This document shows, piece after piece, positions 58,182 through 58,320 of a DNA stretch of 58,320 bases. Position numbers and translations under genes: made by a program. This stretch comes from Bacteroidota bacterium (lineage in GTDB: Bacteria; Bacteroidota; Bacteroidia; B-17B0; Aurantibacillaceae): assembly GCA_025363015.1 (NCBI GenBank), contig JANYEQ010000135.1:1-58320 (forward strand). Reading direction: 5' to 3'. The notes beneath the pieces are model-generated. The model had not been told where the DNA came from, did not search any database, and saw only the letters and a list, made by a program, of their open reading frames with translations. How positions within the stretch are numbered: position 1 is the first letter of the stretch; each line of letters opens with the position of its first letter.

Positions 58182-58257
58182 ATTACATATTTGAAAAAAC
58201 CAATATTACTTAAATTAAAACTGTGTTTAACCTAAGGCTTGTTTTAAATCTTATGCT

Positions 58258-58320
58258 ATGCAAGACTTAAAAATTTATCTTTCCACTGCTCCAGTATTAG
58301 CCACTTTATGGTTTGGCTTG
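58258..58320 (+). CDS. psaJ: Photosystem I subunit IX (PsaJ) N-terminus, plastid-like, 3' partial
   Basis: The frame from the ATG at 58258 to the window edge gives 21 residues, including [14 protein letters not shown], that match the N-terminus of PsaJ of land plants and streptophyte algae (MxDLKxYLSxAPVLxTLWFG). PsaJ is a about 42-residue single-helix subunit of photosystem I and occurs only in cyanobacteria and plastids. Nothing around it suggests phototrophy; the preceding genes are ordinary Bacteroidota. It is most likely plastid DNA joined by assembly error, or rarely a real insertion. The join must lie between 58182 and 58257, where no gene or hairpin is seen. The similarity call is strong for so short a piece; its origin is inference. 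Confidence 0.72.

What the first reader, a model, noticed from the sequence alone, without database searches (positions are those of the whole stretch)
58182..58320. PsaJ start at the right edge of a Bacteroidota contig
The last 63 bases encode a start-to-edge match to photosystem I PsaJ in its streptophyte form ([14 protein letters not shown] within 21 residues). PsaJ has no place in Bacteroidota. Either the contig end is chimeric with plastid DNA from an alga or plant in the same sample, or there is a recent insertion of plastid DNA. Either way the right edge should not be trusted as genomic context, and it hints at an alga- or plant-associated sample.
Basis: partly seen in the sequence, partly recalled or inferred. 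Interest (0 to 1): 0.75.

Follow-up and report, generated by a model that had tools for sequence, protein, structure and literature searches.

The report
Plastid-chimera tip ending a bacterial contig
The last 68 bases of this bacterial contig are very probably a scrap of green-plastid DNA (the start of the photosystem gene psaJ) wrongly joined on during sequencing or assembly, and another contig of the same genome shows how the bacterial gene really continues, so this is an ordinary artefact.

Summary
Bases 58258-58320 encode [21 protein letters not shown], the start of PsaJ (Pfam PF01701, E 7.2e-9; 18 of 20 residues identical to the best PDB chain). The window is one whole contig, G000:C24, so 58320 is the contig edge.

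Contig C18:1-190 matches window 58063-58252 at 97% (185 of 190). C18 then runs on as a cystathionine gamma-synthase-type gene, while C24 switches to psaJ at 58253. The join cuts that gene in its last codons; the stub left in C24 reads DLKQALG-stop, the exact ending in 5 of 19 copies from other genomes.

The foreign part is 58253-58320 (68 bases), not 58182-58320. Three other photosynthesis families gave no match in this genome. Of 395 phylum genomes PF01701 rings in two: this and a chance antisense frame. Several contig edges overlap by exactly 141 bases, suggesting a k=141 graph; the last 141-mer of C24 is 73 bacterial plus 68 foreign bases. A strain-specific insertion is not formally excluded, since no reads were available.

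The parts
57969..58181 (+). yidD (membrane protein insertion efficiency factor), bacterial; its 3' part is shared with C18:1-119
   Evidence: Pfam PF01809 E 9.7e-31; NCBIfam TIGR00278 above cut-off; the two differences from C18 inside the gene (58121, 58139) are synonymous
58063..58252 (.). stretch shared with the left end of contig C18 (1-190), 185 of 190 bases identical, no gap; bacterial
58227..58252 (-). last codons and stop of a cystathionine gamma-synthase-type gene, cut by the join; reads DLKQALG-stop
   Evidence: frame; same 7-residue ending in 5 of 19 copies from other genomes; the gene body in C18 matches NF005871 at 524.4 bits, cut-off 513
58253..58320 (+). foreign tail (68 bases): five bases plus the first 21 codons of a green-plastid-type psaJ, cut by the contig edge

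Best explanation
The tail is an artefact. A piece of green-plastid DNA from another organism in the sample (the start of psaJ) was joined to a bacterial fragment, most likely in one chimeric library molecule, and the short-read assembler kept it as a 68-base dead-end tip at the right edge of C24. In the real chromosome yidD is followed, on the opposite strand, by a cystathionine gamma-synthase-type gene, as in C18. Shown: the overlap, the switch point, the PsaJ identity and the cut bacterial gene. Inferred: that the sample held a plastid, that the joining happened in the library rather than in the graph, and that the C24 and C18 ends come from two co-occurring strains (5 of 190 bases differ). 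The confidence is for an artefact of either kind, library chimera or graph misjoin.
For: C18:1-190 equals 58063-58252 at 97% and then shares nothing with C24. C18 continues as an open gene matching cystathionine gamma-synthase NF005871 above cut-off. C24 itself keeps the end of that gene: DLKQALG-stop, found exactly in 5 of 19 copies from other genomes, with a final glycine in 10 of 19, so the bacterial side of the join is recognisable without C18. The left edge of C24 overlaps C5 and C123 by exactly 141 bases, and 6 pairs among 123 sampled contig ends overlap by exactly 141, suggesting k=141; the last 141-mer of C24 (58180-58320) still holds 73 bacterial bases. PsaA/PsaB, Photo_RC and RuBisCO large chain: no match in this genome at E 0.001. 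In 39 other genus genomes no match to the psaJ part: 4 of them match weakly, all inside the bacterial 71 bases of the query.
Against: No reads or depth were available, so the number of molecules behind the join is unknown. The plastid of origin was not found, so its own sequence before psaJ could not be compared. The yidD-synthase order is not seen in relatives: in G001 and G005 the two lie on one contig but about 66 and 71 kb apart, and in the other relatives where both matched they lie on different contigs. So that order rests on C18 and on the 26-base stub in C24. The tail differs from the best PsaJ chain at 2 of 20 residues, so no exact source is shown.
Confidence: 0.95

Rival explanations
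1. A real insertion of plastid DNA into the synthase gene in one strain of this bacterium: C24 carries the inserted allele and C18 the empty one.
For: The C24 and C18 ends differ at 5 of 190 bases, the two in yidD being synonymous, so they may be two haplotypes, and only one carries the tail.
Against: The contig stops 68 bases after the join, within one 141-mer, as a poorly supported tip would; an insertion at strain depth should have assembled further (inference). It would cut a gene whose DNA was matched in 39 of 40 relatives, in some only in part and possibly as a paralogue; G009 matched only in yidD. Three further photosynthesis families gave nothing, though a small insertion need not carry them.
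Confidence: 0.02
2. An artefact of the other kind, a graph misjoin: the plastid spacer before psaJ happens to share a short k-mer with the bacterial sequence and the assembler spliced the two paths. (This share is counted inside the confidence of the best explanation.)
For: Both sequences are AT-rich, and C24 and C18 share only 20 identical bases between their last difference (58232) and the join. Assemblers of this kind start from small k (recalled).
Against: At larger k such a join needs reads that cross it (recalled). The 26 bases before the join read as the proper end of the synthase gene, so a shared k-mer with a plastid spacer would be a coincidence.
Confidence: 0.1
3. The PsaJ piece is of cyanobacterial or cyanophage origin rather than plastid.
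For: PsaJ occurs in cyanobacteria; the PF01701 control rings in Synechococcus elongatus.
Against: The PDB sequence shared with 1jb0 (recalled as cyanobacterial) scores E 0.013, against 4.1e-8 for the best chain; the organisms of several chains between 1e-3 and 1e-2 are not known to me. The 41-base pattern for [14 protein letters not shown] has 0 exact matches in genome contigs and 0 in viral contigs, and the looser 29-base pattern has 2 in genome contigs, neither a PsaJ by context. tblastn of the 21 residues finds nothing in the phage records, but a 21-residue query is weak there.
Confidence: 0.02

Closest known systems
Photosystem I subunit IX, PsaJ (PF01701), green plastid form
   Same: Residues 1-20 match from the start codon, 18 of 20 identical to the best PDB chain (6l35, recalled as a moss)
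   Different: Only 21 codons are present, cut by the contig edge
Inter-kingdom chimeric contig end
   Same: Foreign stretch at the very edge of a contig; [quoted passage not shown]
   Different: 68 bases, far shorter than the 1-kbp pieces tested in that paper, so such a screen may miss it (inference)

Membership tests
PsaJ (PF01701) | Match to the family profile above its curated cut-off | tested here: met
   Pfam 36.4 bits against 22.4, positions 1-20 of 37; the NCBIfam model NF002743 is matched below its whole-protein cut-off, 22.7 against 69
PsaJ (PF01701) | Full-length reading frame (about 40 residues) | not testable with these tools
   The frame runs off the contig edge after 21 residues
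PsaJ (PF01701) | Plastid gene neighbours such as rpl33 and rps18 (named in the finding) | not testable with these tools
   The contig ends at 58320; before the ATG there are five bases and then the bacterial gene
Chimeric contig end | A second contig overlaps the edge and continues differently, with the host's own gene | tested here: met
   C18
Chimeric contig end | Join supported by few or no independent read pairs | not testable with these tools
   No reads available
Genuine plastid-to-bacterium insertion | Bacterial sequence on both sides of the foreign piece | not testable with these tools
   The contig ends inside the foreign piece
Genuine plastid-to-bacterium insertion | Same insertion in related genomes (expected only if it is old) | tested here: not met
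   0 of 39 other genus genomes match the psaJ part at E 0.001

The most novel reading that the evidence does not exclude
One strain of this Bacteroidota population carries a recent insertion of green-plastid DNA that cuts its cystathionine gamma-synthase-type gene: a plastid-to-bacterium transfer caught before loss.
Probability: 0.02. Interest if true: 0.5.

Novelty: not a real feature. Interest (0 to 1): 0.04.

Why it matters
It matters for quality control only: an annotation could report a photosystem gene in a Bacteroidota genome, and the right edge of this contig cannot be used as gene context. The bin's listed contamination is low (1.33), so such a tip would not show there (inference). 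The bacterial sequence of C24 should be taken to end at 58252.

Tried and rejected
Looking for the source: degenerate patterns in genome contigs (0 matches, 2 matches, in Bradyrhizobium and Nitrincola, neither a PsaJ by its reading context) and in viral contigs; tblastn in plasmids and phages (no match). No plastid collection is held. The 41-base pattern covers serine only as TCN; the 29-base pattern, APVL(A/S)TLWFG, does not depend on that serine. Both demand exact matches, and the tool notes that records near the window's own genome may be left out.

A second Bacteroidota match to PF01701 (G103, 24.7 bits, above cut-off) covers profile positions 9-31 only. Its frame lies antisense inside a 346-residue frame that reads like fructose-1,6-bisphosphatase (recalled). 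Judged a chance match. In the looser search of the own genome, at E up to 10, the control rang in 10 of 14 genomes, 1 of them over the cut-off, so weak matches to this short profile mean nothing.

Yardstick of contig edges: 123 of 286 contig ends compared. There were 22 hits between different ends. Six pairs overlap by exactly 141 bases at 100% (C1/C26, C10/C41, C13/C54, C50/C6, C52/C9, C24/C5). Other hits are repeat-like or near-identical, for example C22/C49 99.3% over 147, C47/C59 100% over 101, C19/C22 100% over 116 (inside C22), C11/C21 93% over 276, C33/C46 88% over 373, C17/C42 78% over 136. Besides C24/C18, one more opposite-direction match of 95% or more leaves a long non-matching tail: C13/C54, 96% over 108; but these two ends also share their last 141 bases in the same direction, so that is an inverted repeat. 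C24/C18 is thus not the only uneven overlap, but it is the only one seen with a recognisable foreign tail. The other edges were not screened for foreign DNA beyond a search with this tail, which found no second copy.

Paper searches gave listings only; one paper was seen in passages. Nothing is claimed here about what is or is not in print on this case.

Full report
What is there. The window is the whole of contig C24 of an assembly of 143 contigs and 3,325,576 bases, listed as 99.99 complete with 1.33 contamination. Its last ORF, 58258-58320 (+), runs off the edge and reads [21 protein letters not shown]. This is the start of photosystem I subunit PsaJ: PF01701 E 7.2e-9; all 51 PDB sequences listed at E up to 10 are named PsaJ or photosystem I subunit IX, the best at E 4.1e-8 with 18/20 identical residues. 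The NCBIfam model is matched too, below its whole-protein cut-off. In six frames of the whole window the next best match to that 20-residue stretch is 7/20.

Where the foreign part begins. A DNA search of the window's own genome with 58182-58320 returned a second place, C18:120-190. With a longer query the match is C18:1-190 to window 58063-58252 at 97%, with five single-base differences and no gap. From 58253 on the two contigs differ throughout. C18 continues with a gene on the minus strand whose protein matches cystathionine gamma-synthase NF005871 at 524.4 bits, cut-off 513 (related lyase and synthase models follow below their cut-offs among the 25 shown). In C24 the last 26 bases before the join encode the end of the same gene, DLKQALG-stop; C18 has DLKQALS-stop. 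In the 19 loci taken from other genomes the last seven residues are DLKQALG in 5, DLKQALA in 4 and close variants in the rest; the final residue is glycine in 10 of 19 (one of the 19, L031, was found only with a looser motif). So 58182-58252 is bacterial and the foreign part is 58253-58320 only.

Which reading is right. A chimeric tip explains this. Branch ends in this assembly often overlap by exactly 141 bases: the left edge of C24 does so with C5 and C123, and 6 pairs among 123 of 286 contig ends do. That is what a de Bruijn graph with k=141 leaves; 141 as MEGAHIT's usual largest k is recalled, and only lists papers that hold the phrase 'k-max 141'. The final 141-mer of C24, 58180-58320, is 73 bacterial plus 68 foreign bases, so every 141-mer that reaches the tail also holds bacterial sequence. 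This fits a dead-end tip from one chimeric read or its duplicates (inference). The C18 start has no exact overlap with another contig; its only partner in the genome at E 1e-6 is C24. The five differences, of which the two in yidD are synonymous, suggest two co-occurring strains whose divergence broke the graph here (inference).

Is psaJ at home in these bacteria? Not as far as searched. In 395 genomes drawn from the phylum, PF01701 rings in two: this one and a match that lies antisense in another gene. In 40 genus genomes (this one included) only C24 matches the psaJ part; 4 other genomes match weakly inside the bacterial part of the query. PsaA/PsaB, Photo_RC and RuBisCO large chain give no match in this genome, so no larger plastid contamination was seen with these three families.

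Source. In one search the two best chains read [20 protein letters not shown] over the aligned part; the next three shown read MRD(L/I)KTYLSVAPVLSTLWFG. By recalled organisms (the call names none): 6l35 is a moss; pea chains (4y28, 5l8r) score 4.6e-5; Bryopsis (6igz) 2e-5; Chlamydomonas (6ijj) 8.5e-5; the sequence shared with 1jb0, a cyanobacterium, 0.013. So the order does not cleanly part land plants from green algae. A green plastid of moss or streptophyte-algal type is favoured, and some chlorophytes are not excluded. The motif [14 protein letters not shown] had no exact match in genome contigs, one genome for each of 84,980 bacterial and archaeal species, or in viral contigs; the looser pattern had two matches that are not PsaJ; plasmids and phages gave none.

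Limits. No reads, depth or plastid collection were available. The yidD-synthase order is not seen in relatives (about 66 kb apart in G001 and 71 kb in G005, on different contigs elsewhere where both matched), so the true order rests on C18 plus the stub in C24. A strain-specific insertion is thus not formally excluded, but nothing found here favours it over the artefact.

Noticed in passing
3-6404 (+): A frame of 2133 residues, open at the left edge, with SprB repeats (PF13573, 16 stretches, E 8.2e-116), PKD domains and a C-terminal CHU_C type IX secretion signal domain: a large secreted, gliding-adhesin-like protein. GC is 0.40-0.45 over its length, against 0.25-0.40 in the rest of the window. 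The contig breaks inside it.
   Followed up: partly
1-141: The left edge is shared exactly (141 bases) with the starts of contigs C5 and C123, an assembly branch inside the SprB-repeat gene.
   Followed up: yes
L034:1492-1605 (G103:C11:159558-159626): A chance antisense frame passes the Pfam gathering cut-off for PsaJ (24.7 bits): a warning about short membrane-protein profiles in six-frame searches.
   Followed up: yes
56716-57951 (+): SpoIIE-type phosphatase gene (PF07228, E 1.3e-36) just before yidD.
   Followed up: no
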